Source: Muricea muricata
Lineage: Eukaryota > Cnidaria > Anthozoa > Malacalcyonacea > Plexauridae
Direction: 5' to 3'
Length of the DNA: 64,000 bases
NCBI GenBank assembly: GCA_963855995.1
Contig: OY979716.1
Location: 39,619,318 to 39,683,317, forward strand
The notes under the pieces were generated by a model. It searched no databases, was not told where the DNA came from, and worked only from the letters and a program-made list of their open reading frames with translations. Below are positions 41,834 through 48,603 of this stretch, piece by piece; position 1 is the first letter of the stretch; every line of letters starts with the position of its first letter. The translations under genes and the position numbers were made by a program.

Positions 41834-42030
41834 AGTAGTATTACCCCCGTATGGCGCCGGAAGTAATTAGTATGCGCTGCTATATAGGGAAATGACGTCA
41901 TTGCAAAGATGTGCGCACGCTAGGATGTGCACACGCGAGAATATGCGCACGCAAGGATGTGCGCACGGTAGTATTCGGAAAAAACATATTTTTAGAAAAA
42001 TGTATTGAAACAATGAAAATTTTACAAAGT

Positions 42031-42145
42031 ATATATAAATATATATATATATATATATATATATATATATATATATATATATATATATATATATATATAT
42101 ATATATATATATATATATATATATATATATATATATATATATATT
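42031..42145. repeat. (TA)n microsatellite, left arm
   Basis: About 57 TA units. The mirrored tract at 48258-48380 is longer. Confidence 0.95.
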
Positions 42146-42199
42146 ATACAAAGTATTTCACGAAGTATTAAGAGGTTTGTCATGCTGGTCTTGTAATGT

Positions 42200-42649
42200 T
42201 CACACGTCAGTCCAAATGCACCCACAGTATGTAGCTTGTCCGCATTCCAGGACGACGTCAATGGATAACCGGCAGAGCACTGATCGGAGTCGCATTATAC
42301 ATTCTGCATGTATTGTTGTATGGCAACAACTGGTTATCATAAGCTGTTCGTTGTTCTTTTTTTCCAAACACAAAAAACATAGTTCATTGTCCGGAAATAA
42401 TGTCCTGCAATAGCCACAGCGTACTGTCTCGTCGACCACGGACGATGCTGCCCAATATCTAAAACACTCACAGTGAGCACCTTGGTGACAACACGGTGTA
42501 TTCATAGCGAGTACCTCTTCGGCCTCGATACCTTCAAAACAGAAATGGCATTGCTTTTCTTCTATACCGTTTTCCGATGTGCGCACGTTGTGGTGCGTGT
42601 ACGCGAGGAAGCCCATACTGTATATCAGTCTTAATTTCAGAACAGTCAT
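42200..42649 (-). CDS. Tandem RING-type zinc protein (149 aa), left-arm copy
   Basis: Two Cys/His clusters: CHFC...[14 protein letters not shown]...CGYC (about residues 34-84) and CFLC...[11 protein letters not shown] (about 92-118). The 'C-x2-C ... CCH-x3-H-x-x-C ... C-x2-C' spacing is RING-like, so E3 ubiquitin ligase or protein-binding activity is likely. It reads outward toward the element end, about 370 bp from it. The right-arm twin at 47757-48206 differs at two residues (G/S after MS-, C/S near the end). Both copies are open, which argues for selection or recent arm homogenisation. Confidence 0.7.
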   Translation of the reverse strand: MTVLKLRLIYSMGFLAYTHHNVRTSENGIEEKQCHFCFEGIEAEEVLAMNTPCCHQGAHCECFRYWAASSVVDETVRCGYCRTLFPDNELCFLCLEKKNNEQLMITSCCHTTIHAECIMRLRSVLCRLSIDVVLECGQATYCGCIWTDV

Positions 42650-43540
42650 GATAATATTGATGAAAAATTTTTGATCAGGGGTCGGTTGTATAAAAACGTA
42701 GTTAGTTTAGTTAAGCATGATTAACGTTAGTCATTGTAGCTAGACCTTAAATATGATTAGTTAGCTAACACACCGCTGGCTAATAATGTTTCACTAATAA
42801 TTGTTCAATAAGATCCACAGAGTGACCCCTGTTGCGTAGGTTATACAGTAATATTCTGGTAAAACTTTTTATCATGGCGTTGCTGGAATATTTTAACGAC
42901 GATTTTGAAGTTAACGACAATCTATTAAGGCGTAGTTTACTTTACCGACGTTTTAGATATAGGTAAATACTGACGAGGAGGGATTAATGTCAGACAAGGA
43001 CACGAGGCACGCATCGTCTGAGGGCAATATAATCACATAAACCCCGACTTTCGTAACGTACTTAGTTTATTTTTGAGGAGGTTTTCTAACAAGAATCTTT
43101 TGACTTTAAACAATTAAAGTCGAGGTTCTTCAGGATTTTTCCACAAGTTTCATCTAATTATTTATTTAAGGTAAATAACCTGGGTATACTCCGCGGTACA
43201 TCAAAAAAAAAAAAACCCGACACAAAACTTAAATAAGCTAAGATTAATGCAAATTACTTCTTATTATACAGCCGGTCTAATTGCGGGGTTAAAGTTAACG
43301 ATTATTCAACTATAAAGTAGTGATTAAAAAAGTGGTTAGGAGTTTCATACAACCGGCCATGGGGTTTAAAGTTGTAGTATCACAATGCCTTATTAAAATC
43401 TTACTATAGGAATGAATGAATTTATTGAAAAATATCTATTAAATATATTGAAGCACTATATTACAGGAGACAAGAATTATATCTGTAACTATGTAAAATT
43501 GTAAAAATTACTGTCTTAGAATTTTTAACAAAAGTCTGTT
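42650..43540. other. Arm DNA without recognised gene (left)
   Basis: AT-rich, mirrored by 46864-47756. Includes TTAGTTTAGTTAAGC-type promoter-like AT DNA before the RING gene and a poly-A run. No coding signal. Confidence 0.5.
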
Positions 43541-43556
43541 TCATTTTAATAAAGTA

Positions 43557-43672
43557 TCAAAGAACTGGTCTACATCGAAGTCGGTTGACTCCGACAGCGA
43601 GTCGTCCCATACTATATCGTCGTCCCACTCCAGATCTAGCAAAAAGTCGTTTGCTGCGGGCAGTTTCAAAAG
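43557..43672 (-). CDS. Acidic C-terminal exon, left arm
   Basis: Mirror copy of 46751-46863. After a CTGCCCGCAG acceptor the frame reads NDFLLDLEWDDDIVWDDSL and ends FDVDQFFDTLLK. One residue differs from the right copy (SLSEST versus SLLEST). The short acidic/aromatic segment resembles transactivation- or docking-type peptides; its first exon is unknown. Confidence 0.4.
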
Positions 43673-43842
43673 AAGGAAAAAGGGGGTATGGCGAATGCGA
43701 AATTGTACTGATTTTGGAGCAAAATATTGTTGCGAGGTTTGTTTGCATACATGAATACGGACACAGATTAACGTTTGCAATATTTTATTATGTAAAGTAT
43801 TACGATAGAATAGAAATACAGTGTGGAGCCTTCTTTCATACA

Positions 43843-46120: not shown

Positions 46121-46561
46121 TTGTGGTCATGTAAAGGTCAACTTGCATGCAAACATGGATCATTTACGATAGCGGTCGTGCCGAGACGATTTCGCCAGAC
46201 CTGTCCGGTTTGCGGACGACCTGATTTAAAAAATATCAGTACACATCTTCACCAAGTGCATGGCTTATCTTCTAAAGAGAGAAAACCCTATCGTAAGCAA
46301 GCCAGGGTGTCGTCATGGCATCCGTACACTGACCAACCTCAGCCTTCTGGAGGTGAAAAAGAAGCCAAGAAAATAGAAATGGCCACCACACTCGGTGCGG
46401 AAAAGAAGGGAAGTGATTTAACAAAGCAAGAAGAAAAAATGACAAACGCTCCCGTACGCACGGCCGCATCCGAGCCCGGGAACACTAGTCAACACACGAC
46501 AGAAACGAAGAAAGTCGAATTGAACAAACTTTGTTCAAATACAGTTTATATATTTAATTAG
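46121..46561 (+). CDS. C2H2-type zinc-finger protein (146 aa), right-arm copy
   Basis: Mirror of 43843-44283. The finger CPVCGRPDLKNISTHLHQVH and the basic linker are unchanged; the only difference noted is V for M before PRRFRQ. Reads outward. Ends NTVYIFN just before the acidic exon region. Confidence 0.6.
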   Translation: MWSCKGQLACKHGSFTIAVVPRRFRQTCPVCGRPDLKNISTHLHQVHGLSSKERKPYRKQARVSSWHPYTDQPQPSGGEKEAKKIEMATTLGAEKKGSDLTKQEEKMTNAPVRTAASEPGNTSQHTTETKKVELNKLCSNTVYIFN

Positions 46562-46750
46562 TGTATGAAAGAAGGCTCCACACTGTATTTCTATTCTATC
46601 GTAATACTTTACATAATAAAATATTGCAAACGTTAATCTGTGTCCGTATTCATGTATGCAAACAAACCTCGCAACAATATTTTGCTCCAAAATCAGTACA
46701 ATTTCGCATTCGCCATACCCCCTTTTTCCTTCTTTTGAAACTGCCCGCAG

Positions 46751-46863
46751 CAAACGACTTTTTGCTAGATCTGGAGTGGGACGACGATATAGTATGGGAC
46801 GACTCGCTGTTGGAATCAACCGACTTCGATGTAGACCAGTTCTTTGATACTTTATTAAAATGA
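46751..46863 (+). CDS. Acidic C-terminal exon, right arm
   Basis: Follows a pyrimidine tract and acceptor TTTCCTTCTTTTGAAACTG-CCCGCAG. Reads NDFLLDLEWDDDIVWDDSLL to FDTLLK and a stop at 46863. No ATG opens the wider frame (it would start with GTG at 46561), so an exon is more likely than a whole gene. Confidence 0.4.
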
Positions 46864-47756
46864 AACAGACTTTTGTTAAAAATTCTAAGACAGTAATTTT
46901 TACAATTTTACATAGTTACAGATATAATTCTTGTCTCCTGTAATATAGTGCTTCAATATATTTAATAGATATTTTTCAATAAATTCATTCATTCCTATAG
47001 TAAGATTTTAATAAGGCATTGTGATACTACAACTTTAAACCCCATGGCCGGTTGTATGAAACTCCTAACCACTTTTTTAATCACTACTTTATAGTTGAAT
47101 AATCGTTAACTTTAACCCCGCAATTAGACCGGCTGTATAATAAGAAGTAATTTGCATTAATCTTAGCTTATTTAAGTTTTGTGTCGGGTTTTTTTTTTTT
47201 TTGATGTACCGCGGAGTATACCCAGGTTATTTACCTTAAATAAATAATTAGATGAAACTTGTGGAAAAATCCTGAAGAACCTCGACTTTAATTGTTTAAA
47301 GTCAAAAGATTCTTGTTAGAAAACCTCCTCAAAAATAAACTAAGTACGTTACGAAAGTCGGGGTTTATGTGATTATATTGCTCTCAGACGATGCGTGCCT
47401 CGGGGTCTTTGTATGACATTAATCCCTCCTCGTCAGTATTTACCTATATCTAAAACGTCGGTAAAGTAAACTACGCCTTAATAGATTGTCGTTAACTTCA
47501 AAACCGTCGTTAAAATATTCCAGCAACGCCATAATAAAAAGTTTTACTAGAATATTACTGTATAACCTACGCAACAGGGGTCACTCTGTGGATCTTATTG
47601 AACAATTATTAGTGAAACATTATTAGCCAGCGGTGTGTTAGCTAACTAATCATATTTAAGGTCTAGCTACAATGACTAACGTTAATCATGCTCAACTAAA
47701 CTAACTACGTTTTTATACAACCGACCCCTGATCAAAAATTTTTCATCAATATTATC
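46864..47756. other. Arm DNA without recognised gene (right)
   Basis: Mirror of 42650-43540; contains CTAACTAATC/GTTAGCTAAC-type AT DNA upstream of the RING gene. No coding signal. Confidence 0.5.
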
Positions 47757-48206
47757 ATGACTGTTCTGAAATTAAGACTGATATACAGTATGAGCTTCCT
47801 CGCGTACACGCACCACAACGTGCGCACATCGGAAAACGGTATAGAAGAAAAGCAATGCCATTTCTGTTTTGAAGGTATCGAGGCCGAAGAGGTACTCGCT
47901 ATGAATACACCGTGTTGTCACCAAGGTGCTCACTGTGAGTGTTTTAGATATTGGGCAGCATCGTCCGTGGTCGACGAGACAGTACGCTGTGGCTATTGCA
48001 GGACATTATTTCCGGACAATGAACTATGTTTTTTGTGTTTGGAAAAAAAGAACAACGAACAGCTTATGATAACCAGTTGTTGCCATACAACAATACATGC
48101 AGAATGTATAATGCGACTCCGATCAGTGCTCTCCCGGTTATCCATTGACGTCGTCCTGGAATGCGGACAAGCTACATACTGTGGGTGCATTTGGACTGAC
48201 GTGTGA
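47757..48206 (+). CDS. Tandem RING-type zinc protein (149 aa), right-arm copy
   Basis: Mirror of 42200-42649, with [23 protein letters not shown] and [11 protein letters not shown] in the same order. All presumed metal ligands are kept; the C-to-S change (VLSRLS) lies outside the clusters. Reads outward to the right end. The start ATG follows TCAATATTATC. Confidence 0.7.
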
Positions 48207-48257
48207 ACATTACAAGACCAGCATGACAAACCTCTTAATACTTCGTGAAATACTTTG

Positions 48258-48399
48258 TATAATATATATATATATATATATATATATATATATATATATA
48301 TATATATATATATATATATATATATATATATATATATATATATATATATATATATATATATATATATATATATATATATATGTGTGTATATTTATATAT
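48258..48399. repeat. (TA)n microsatellite, right arm
   Basis: More than 60 TA units, ending in TGTGTGTATATTTATATATAC. Longer than its partner in the left arm. Confidence 0.95.
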
Positions 48400-48603
48400 A
48401 CTTTGTAAAATTTTCATTGTTTCAATACATTTTTCTAAAAATATGTTTTTTCCGAATACTACCGTGCGCACATCCTTGCGTGCGCATATTCTCGCGTGTG
48501 CACATCCTAGCGTGCGCACATCTTCGCAATGACGTCATTTCCCTATATAGCAGCGCATACTAATTACTTCCGGCGCCATACGGGGGGTAATACTACTTTT
48601 GTG

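What the first reader, a model, noticed from the sequence alone, without database searches (positions are those of the whole stretch)
41834..48597. A 6.76-kb near-palindromic element with Polinton-like ends and outward twin gene sets
Seen: perfect 6-bp duplication TTTGTG, inverted ends AGTAGTATTACC, arms of about 2.8 kb (over 80% of the element is arm), the same RING and zinc-finger genes in both arms, and one acidic-helical gene in a 1.1-kb unique centre. Known: Polintons have AG...CT ends and 6-bp TSDs but encode polymerase, integrase and capsid, none of which is here. Inference: a satellite that borrows Polinton-type integrase, or the dimeric (head-to-head) form of a linear replicon. I know of no described family with this layout.
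Basis: partly seen in the sequence, partly recalled or inferred. Interest (0 to 1): 0.9.

Follow-up and report, generated by a model that had tools for sequence, protein, structure and literature searches.

The report
Palindromic Polinton-type satellite with own genes
A 6.8-kb, almost mirror-symmetric mobile DNA element in a eukaryotic genome carries the end signature of giant virus-like transposons (Polintons) but none of their recognisable machinery, only its own zinc-finger, RING and acidic genes, so it looks like a parasite of that machinery.

Summary
Window 41834-48597 is a 6,764-bp inserted element: arms 97% identical over 2.8 kb (16 substitutions in the outer 2.7 kb), ends AGTAGTATTACC, TTTGTG on both sides. 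An unoccupied paralogue of the flank at 33350-33696 shows both flank sequences meeting through one TTTGTG. The ends are the published vertebrate Maverick motif, (AGT)2//(ACT)2 with 6-bp duplications. A Polinton-like provirus (integrase, A32-type ATPase) lies in the same window, with a candidate end ...ATACTACT. The element has no recognisable polymerase, integrase or packaging gene. Its zinc-finger and central proteins belong to families without a Pfam match (162 and 219 database relatives, some on the same contigs) and share one zinc finger; RING relatives are few (19). This copy is damaged: the central gene lacks the start and half the finger of its relatives, and both RING copies lack the same segment. 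Best reading: a helper-dependent satellite of Polintons, replicated by protein priming and inserted by a Polinton integrase, made symmetric by recombination through inverted repeats beside its central gene. The genome search did not complete, so other copies, their ends, one-armed forms and the host are untested.

The parts
41828..41833 (.). left copy of the 6-bp target site duplication TTTGTG
   Evidence: one copy at the joint in the unoccupied paralogue
48598..48603 (.). right copy of the 6-bp target site duplication TTTGTG
41834..44649 (+). left arm (terminal inverted repeat); blurred inner edge to about 44748
45784..48597 (-). right arm (terminal inverted repeat)
41834..41845 (+). terminal motif AGTAGTATTACC, beginning (AGT)2
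   Evidence: (AGT)2//(ACT)2 is the commonest vertebrate Maverick end motif (PMC8097293)
48586..48597 (-). terminal motif, inverted, ending (ACT)2 on the + strand
41909..41972 (.). subterminal cluster of four 16-bp repeats, two of them with the palindrome GTGCGCAC; candidate binding sites for the element's zinc-finger proteins (inferred)
   Evidence: family D6; GTGCGCAC occurs 6 times in the element and 0 times in the rest of the window
48459..48522 (.). mirror copy of the subterminal 16-bp repeat cluster
42200..42649 (-). RING gene, left arm, transcribed outward; lacks the N-terminal segment (about 26 aa) seen in relatives
47757..48206 (+). RING gene, right arm, transcribed outward; same missing segment as in the left arm
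43843..44283 (-). zinc-finger gene, left arm (conserved protein begins at the internal MPRRF)
46121..46561 (+). zinc-finger gene, right arm; the codon that is ATG in the left arm reads GTG here (46178)
43541..43843 (-). 100-codon open frame beginning with GTG, ending in a short acidic stretch; possible second exon of the zinc-finger gene
   Evidence: splicing inferred, no strong donor found
46561..46863 (+). mirror copy of the acidic open frame; candidate acceptor before 46751
44394..44748 (.). inner block of 145-176-bp tandem repeats; two units hold the hairpin GGGACACAT..ATGTCCC; edge of the left arm
45784..46076 (.). inner tandem repeat block, inverted relative to the left block; edge of the right arm
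44749..45579 (+). central acidic/helical gene; relatives begin with a zinc finger (MPRRRKDCPICGK...) whose first half, with the start, is missing here

Best explanation
This is a non-autonomous, helper-dependent mobile replicon (a satellite) of Polinton/Maverick elements. Shown here: it is inserted with a 6-bp target duplication between ends of the (AGT)2//(ACT)2 Maverick type; no polymerase, integrase or packaging gene was recognised in it; it carries its own zinc-finger, RING and acidic/helical proteins; database relatives of the zinc-finger and central proteins are numerous; and a Polinton-like provirus with a similar candidate end is in the same window. Inferred: a Polinton's protein-primed polymerase starts at both (AGT)2 ends by jumping back, a Polinton integrase inserts the linear copy, and the element's two zinc-finger proteins bind its own repeats and control its own or the helper's expression, with the RING protein as a probable ubiquitin ligase. 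The mirror symmetry most likely arose during linear replication, by recombination through the inverted repeat blocks on either side of the central gene, which replaced one end with a copy of the other. Arms of a linear genome can also correct each other, which fits the same RING deletion being present in both arms.
For: Ends and 6-bp TSD match the published Maverick motif. Unoccupied paralogue of the target. Polinton-like provirus in the window: rve integrase E 2.1e-10, Pox_A32 ATPase E 7.9e-14, with a candidate right end ATACTACT at 14300-14307, the only + strand ACTACT between 14190 and 17000; chance of ATACTACT in 200 bp about 0.003 by a first-order model, the 200-bp stretch being my choice after seeing the hit. 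The Pfam scan of four element proteins found only RING above its cut-off. Relatives at E <= 0.01: 219 central, 162 zinc-finger, 19 RING. Equal longest-contig lengths among the listed rows (120, 120, 19): central and zinc-finger share 8 values, zinc-finger and RING 2, central and RING 1; shifted controls over 400 shifts: central/zinc-finger mean 0.05, maximum 2; RING against both mean 0.02, maximum 1. The central and zinc-finger families share a 44-aa domain (hhalign probability 98.2, E 5.9e-14). The same segment is missing from RING in both arms. Arms end inside inverted tandem repeat blocks. In adenovirus vectors, pairs of internal inverted repeats cause replication-induced recombination with deletions or rearrangements (passage of PMC2518115 citing Steinwaerder et al. 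1999 and Carlson et al. 2002).
Against: The element and the window's Polinton share only 8 terminal bases; no further terminal similarity above chance was found. The Polinton's left end lies outside the window, so its own TSD and inverted repeat were not tested, and no polymerase was recognised in the part seen. No second copy of the element's ends was found: the exact terminus had 0 hits in viral contigs, and the genome could not be searched. No helper dependence, excision or replication was observed. The co-occurrence of RING with the other two genes rests on three contig-length values. The genes could equally be remnants of a larger element.
Confidence: 0.56

Rival explanations
1. It is a dead internal-deletion product of one Polinton lineage: its RING and zinc-finger genes are ordinary accessory genes that sat near the end of an autonomous Polinton, and this palindrome is a one-off rearranged remnant, not a propagating satellite.
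For: The central gene and both RING copies are truncated relative to relatives. Accessory genes beside the core are usual in Mavericks. Symmetric defective genomes are known for adenoviruses (recalled).
Against: The central and zinc-finger proteins have many relatives; 45 of the 120 listed central relatives have an MPRRR-type start and more than 230 aa, and some share contigs with zinc-finger relatives. The part of the Polinton inside the window shows no significant relative of either by profile search (RING was not tested there). Polintons carrying these genes elsewhere are still possible, because the relatives' neighbours could not be read.
Confidence: 0.25
2. It is a non-Polinton DNA transposon (fold-back type with very long inverted repeats) whose unknown transposase happens to make 6-bp duplications; its central protein or a longer relative supplies the enzyme.
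For: Long inverted repeats and multicopy genes are common in DNA transposons (recalled). The central protein family has no recognised domain, so an enzyme cannot be strictly excluded.
Against: The 6-bp TSD plus (AGT)2//(ACT)2 ends are the specific Maverick combination. The central protein looks like a zinc finger, an acidic linker and a helical region (the model is of low confidence).
Confidence: 0.13
3. The ends derive from a rolling-circle (CRESS-type) origin: TAGTATTACC resembles the circovirus/nanovirus nicking site (recalled).
For: AGTAGTATTACC contains that ten-base string at both ends.
Against: No ORF was recognised as a Rep (Pfam only); the motif lies at the very terminus of the insert; a 6-bp TSD is not expected from rolling-circle insertion (recalled); (AGT)2 is explained by Polinton ends.
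Confidence: 0.03
4. The palindrome is an assembly artefact.
For: Reads were not available.
Against: The two outer flanks are different and match the two sides of an unoccupied paralogue; the arms differ at 16 sites in the outer 2.7 kb and in repeat number.
Confidence: 0.03

Closest known systems
Polinton/Maverick (adintovirus-type) elements
   Same: (AGT)2//(ACT)2 termini, perfect 6-bp TSD, terminal inverted repeats (passages of PMC8097293)
   Different: No polymerase, integrase or ATPase recognised, no capsid candidate; 6.8 kb rather than a mean of about 17 kb; arms of 2.8 kb against 46-1,447 bp reported for intact vertebrate Mavericks
Adenovirus symmetric genomes: Ad12 SYREC (recalled) and vector genomes rearranged through internal inverted repeats (Steinwaerder et al. 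1999, seen only as cited in a passage of PMC2518115)
   Same: Linear genome of the protein-primed kind; SYREC (recalled) has the same end and arm on both sides of a central segment
   Different: Those are products of cultured virus; this is an inserted genomic element with its own gene families
Transpovirons and virophages (recalled; titles and abstract starts seen)
   Same: Small DNA parasite that depends on a larger DNA virus (proposed here)
   Different: Different genes as far as recalled; no relative of the element's proteins was confirmed in IMG/VR scans
Teratorn (passage of PMC6431247)
   Different: 41-182 kb, a transposase of its own (piggyBac-like), 18-bp TIRs; none of this here

Membership tests
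Polinton/Maverick | 5'-(AGT)2//(ACT)2-3' (or related) end motif | tested here: met
Polinton/Maverick | perfect 6-bp target site duplication | tested here: met
   (unoccupied paralogue; tandem-repeat caveat)
Polinton/Maverick | protein-primed DNA polymerase B gene | tested here: not met
   largest ORF in the element is 276 aa and none of the four proteins scanned matches a polymerase
Polinton/Maverick | retroviral-like integrase gene | tested here: not met
   no rve match in the four proteins scanned, whereas the neighbouring Polinton's integrase gives E 2.1e-10
Polinton/Maverick | packaging ATPase gene | tested here: not met
   no match in the four proteins scanned; the neighbouring Polinton's gives Pox_A32 E 7.9e-14
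Polinton/Maverick | capsid protein genes | tested here: inconclusive
   no ORF above 276 aa and no capsid match, but Pfam also missed the neighbouring Polinton's capsid candidate
Helper-dependent satellite of a Polinton | same replication/integration ends as a helper in the same genome | tested here: inconclusive
   8 shared terminal bases with the candidate right end of the window's Polinton; its left end is outside the window
Helper-dependent satellite of a Polinton | several independent insertions with the same ends and no helper genes | not tested
   The genome search unanswered in all 14 calls; protein relatives only
Helper-dependent satellite of a Polinton | mobilisation or replication in trans | not testable with these tools
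   needs experiment
CRESS-DNA (rolling-circle) element | HUH Rep protein | tested here: not met
   no Rep match among the four proteins scanned

The most novel reading that the evidence does not exclude
A previously undescribed class of satellite elements, probably of animals (host not identified here): linear, mirror-symmetric replicons that own a private regulatory gene kit (two paralogous zinc-finger protein families with acidic parts, plus RING proteins) and hijack Polinton polymerase, integrase and possibly capsids, a counterpart of virophage/transpoviron parasitism, amplified to many copies in its host lineages.
Probability: 0.33. Interest if true: 0.8.

Novelty: new variant of a known kind. 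Interest (0 to 1): 0.62.

Why it matters
Polintons are linked by others to the origins of many eukaryotic DNA viruses (passage), yet small parasites of Polintons that carry their own conserved genes are not something I found described (listings from an open-licence library). If the satellite reading is right, it gives a natural substrate for asking whether Polintons still replicate by protein priming and insert into host DNA: a small element with little but ends and regulators. The symmetry would be a natural record of the inverted-repeat rearrangement known from adenovirus vectors.

Tried and rejected
Searches that gave nothing: viral contigs with the RING, zinc-finger and central proteins, with the Polinton capsid candidate and ATPase, with the exact element terminus, and with the zinc-finger alignment (65 stretches matched a pattern, none confirmed). 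Genome contigs with the central family (83 stretches matched, none confirmed). Phage records with the central protein. PDB with the central family and two Polinton proteins. Rfam (gathering scores) and tRNA scans of the window: 0. PHROGs gave the zinc-finger protein only a weak match to a family of unknown function (E 0.005).

AlphaFold models: central relative P0003 had mean pLDDT 51.9 and pTM 0.29; the Polinton capsid candidate as a single sequence had pLDDT 29.5. Both were too poor, so no fold search was made; the capsid identity of 8064-9287 rests on position and recall.

Considered and rejected: a rolling-circle origin; an assembly artefact; the AGTAGTATA at 22903 as another element end (the only ATACTACT to its right is the element's own end). 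Splicing of the zinc-finger ORF to the acidic frame was examined: ten frame-compatible GT sites, none strong, so it stays a possibility. The ratio of zinc-finger to central relatives was not used to count arms, because clustering and gene calling bias it. Adenovirus searches did not list the original SYREC papers; that comparison is recalled. A search on adintovirus accessory genes and corals gave nothing of use; PMC11071308 (passages) mentions Polintons in a coral but not elements like this.
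Full report
What is there. The element spans 41834-48597. Its two arms are inverted copies, 97.0% identical over 2,845 aligned columns. The repeat finder lists a 1,331-bp core as 100% complementary; that is rounded, since my alignment has five substitutions in it. In all that alignment has 28 substitutions in 2,945 columns: 16 in the outer 2.7 kb (41834-44533), the rest in the inner tandem repeats, where the arms no longer match unit for unit. The ends are AGTAGTATTACC, found without mismatch only at these two places in the window. 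TTTGTG stands on both sides. A second copy of the flanking repeat tract, unoccupied, lies at 33350-33696 on the other strand. It matches the last 40 bases of the left flank exactly and goes on into the right-flank sequence with one TTTGTG at the joint. This supports a real insertion with a 6-bp duplication; because the tract is an ~18-bp tandem repeat that contains TTTGTG, a shift by whole units cannot be fully excluded.

The end signature. PMC8097293 (passages read) reports that intact vertebrate Mavericks have 6-bp TSDs, that the commonest end motif is 5'-(AGT)2//(ACT)2-3', that such repeats allow the jumping-back step of protein-primed replication, and that their TIRs measure 46-1,447 bp. 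The element has this motif at both ends. Its arms are longer than that range.

A Polinton in the same window. ORFs between 1 and 14190 include a retroviral-type integrase (rve, E 2.1e-10), a Pox_A32-type packaging ATPase (E 7.9e-14) and a collagen-repeat protein. A capsid candidate at 8064-9287 is placed by position and recall only (no Pfam or PDB match and no usable model). The frame open to the left edge (3-746, minus strand) looks to me like the start of a Polinton polymerase (recalled; no Pfam match). The only + strand ACTACT between 14190 and 17000 is at 14302-14307, within ATACTACT, about 110 bp after the last gene; a first-order model gives about 0.003 for that 8-mer within 200 bp, a stretch I chose after seeing the hit. 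So a Polinton with the same kind of end probably stops there. Beyond the eight bases the two ends are not detectably similar, so this Polinton is an example of a helper, not necessarily the helper.

The genes. Each arm carries an outward RING ORF (149 aa; zf-RING_2 in the copy scanned) and an outward zinc-finger ORF (146 aa); the centre carries an acidic/helical ORF. Database relatives at E <= 0.01: 219 for the centre, 162 for the zinc-finger protein, 19 for RING (the best 120, 120 and 19 were listed). The listed source is 'ena' for 257 of these 259 and 'ncbi' for two; no organism is given, and no call identified the host (that it looks cnidarian to me is recall). None of the 240 listed central and zinc-finger relatives carries a precomputed Pfam domain. 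The central relatives begin with a zinc finger; the window's copy has lost its first half, both cysteines included, together with the start. The profiles of the central and zinc-finger families share this 44-residue domain (probability 98.2, E 5.9e-14), and each profile also finds the other gene inside the window. In 37 central proteins that I chose from the 120 listed, the finger and the helical part are somewhat more conserved (0.86, 0.84) than the acidic linker (0.79) and tail (0.75). 45 of the 120 listed central relatives have an MPRRR-type start and more than 230 aa. Of nine RING relatives that I read, eight show the N-terminal segment, or part of it, that both arm copies here lack; the ninth begins inside the RING part.

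Do the genes travel together? I compared the longest-contig lengths of the listed rows. The central and zinc-finger sets share 8 values, zinc-finger and RING 2, central and RING 1. Shifted controls (400 shifts) average 0.05 matches (maximum 2) for central against zinc-finger and 0.02 (maximum 1) for RING against both. One contig length is listed per cluster, so shared contigs can be missed, and the neighbourhoods themselves could not be read. RING is the weakest link: few relatives, few shared contigs.

How it probably works. Shown: ends, TSD, no recognised replication, integration or packaging gene, own gene families, a Polinton in the window. Inferred: the Polinton polymerase starts on the (AGT)2 ends, and the Polinton integrase inserts the linear product. 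The zinc-finger proteins probably bind the element's own repeats: GTGCGCAC occurs six times in the element, in the subterminal clusters and inside the RING ORF near its 5' end, and nowhere in the other 57 kb. RING suggests ubiquitin transfer to a host or helper protein. The mirror form probably arose by recombination through the inverted 145-176-bp repeat blocks beside the central gene. [quoted passage not shown] The identical RING deletion in both arms fits copying of one arm onto the other, or a deletion older than the symmetry.

What speaks against it. No second copy of the ends has been seen. Scans of viral contigs with all three proteins, the terminus and the finger alignment confirmed nothing, as did prokaryote genomes with the central family. 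The genome search did not complete in 14 calls. The copy is damaged, so it may be a dead remnant. The similarity of TAGTATTACC to a CRESS nicking site (recalled) is best treated as coincidence.

Novelty. It works like a Polinton at its ends but is not filed as a Polinton, because polymerase, integrase and packaging ATPase genes were looked for and not found. Four 'non-autonomous Polinton/Maverick' phrases and 'Maverick-derived' occur in no paper of the 5.39 million held; 'Polinton-derived' occurs in three (listing only). Broader word searches (listings only) showed no title on such an element. I rate it a new variant of a known kind, with the bolder satellite-class reading at one in three.

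Noticed in passing
1-14307: Polinton-like provirus: integrase 5218-6090 (-), A32-type ATPase 9292-9894 (+), capsid candidate 8064-9287 (+, by recall), collagen-repeat protein 10975-12663 (+), candidate right end ATACTACT at 14300-14307; the left end is outside the window.
   Followed up: partly
33350-33696: Unoccupied paralogue, on the other strand, of the tandem-repeat tract into which the element is inserted.
   Followed up: yes
42874-42963 and 47443-47532: Inward-directed exon-like ORF (30 aa) in each arm, ending at a good-looking splice donor (AG|GTAAAT); no significant match elsewhere in the window (best E 0.32).
   Followed up: partly
41893-41900 and 48530-48537: TGACGTCA (a CRE-like palindrome, recalled) about 60 bp from each end, next to CTATATAG; one other copy in the window.
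   Followed up: no
20827-33112, 49399-56097: Dispersed repeat blocks of about 0.1-1.1 kb, about 86-95% identical, pairing 20.8-24.5 kb with 29.7-33.1 kb and 25.2-29.8 kb with 49.4-56.1 kb.
   Followed up: no
P0236 (protein relative): Zinc-finger relative whose N-terminal finger is of a different subtype but whose C-terminal half is like the element's own, suggesting domain exchange between related elements.
   Followed up: no
17378-18211: ORF that looks like a PIF/Harbinger-type transposase (recalled, not tested).
   Followed up: no
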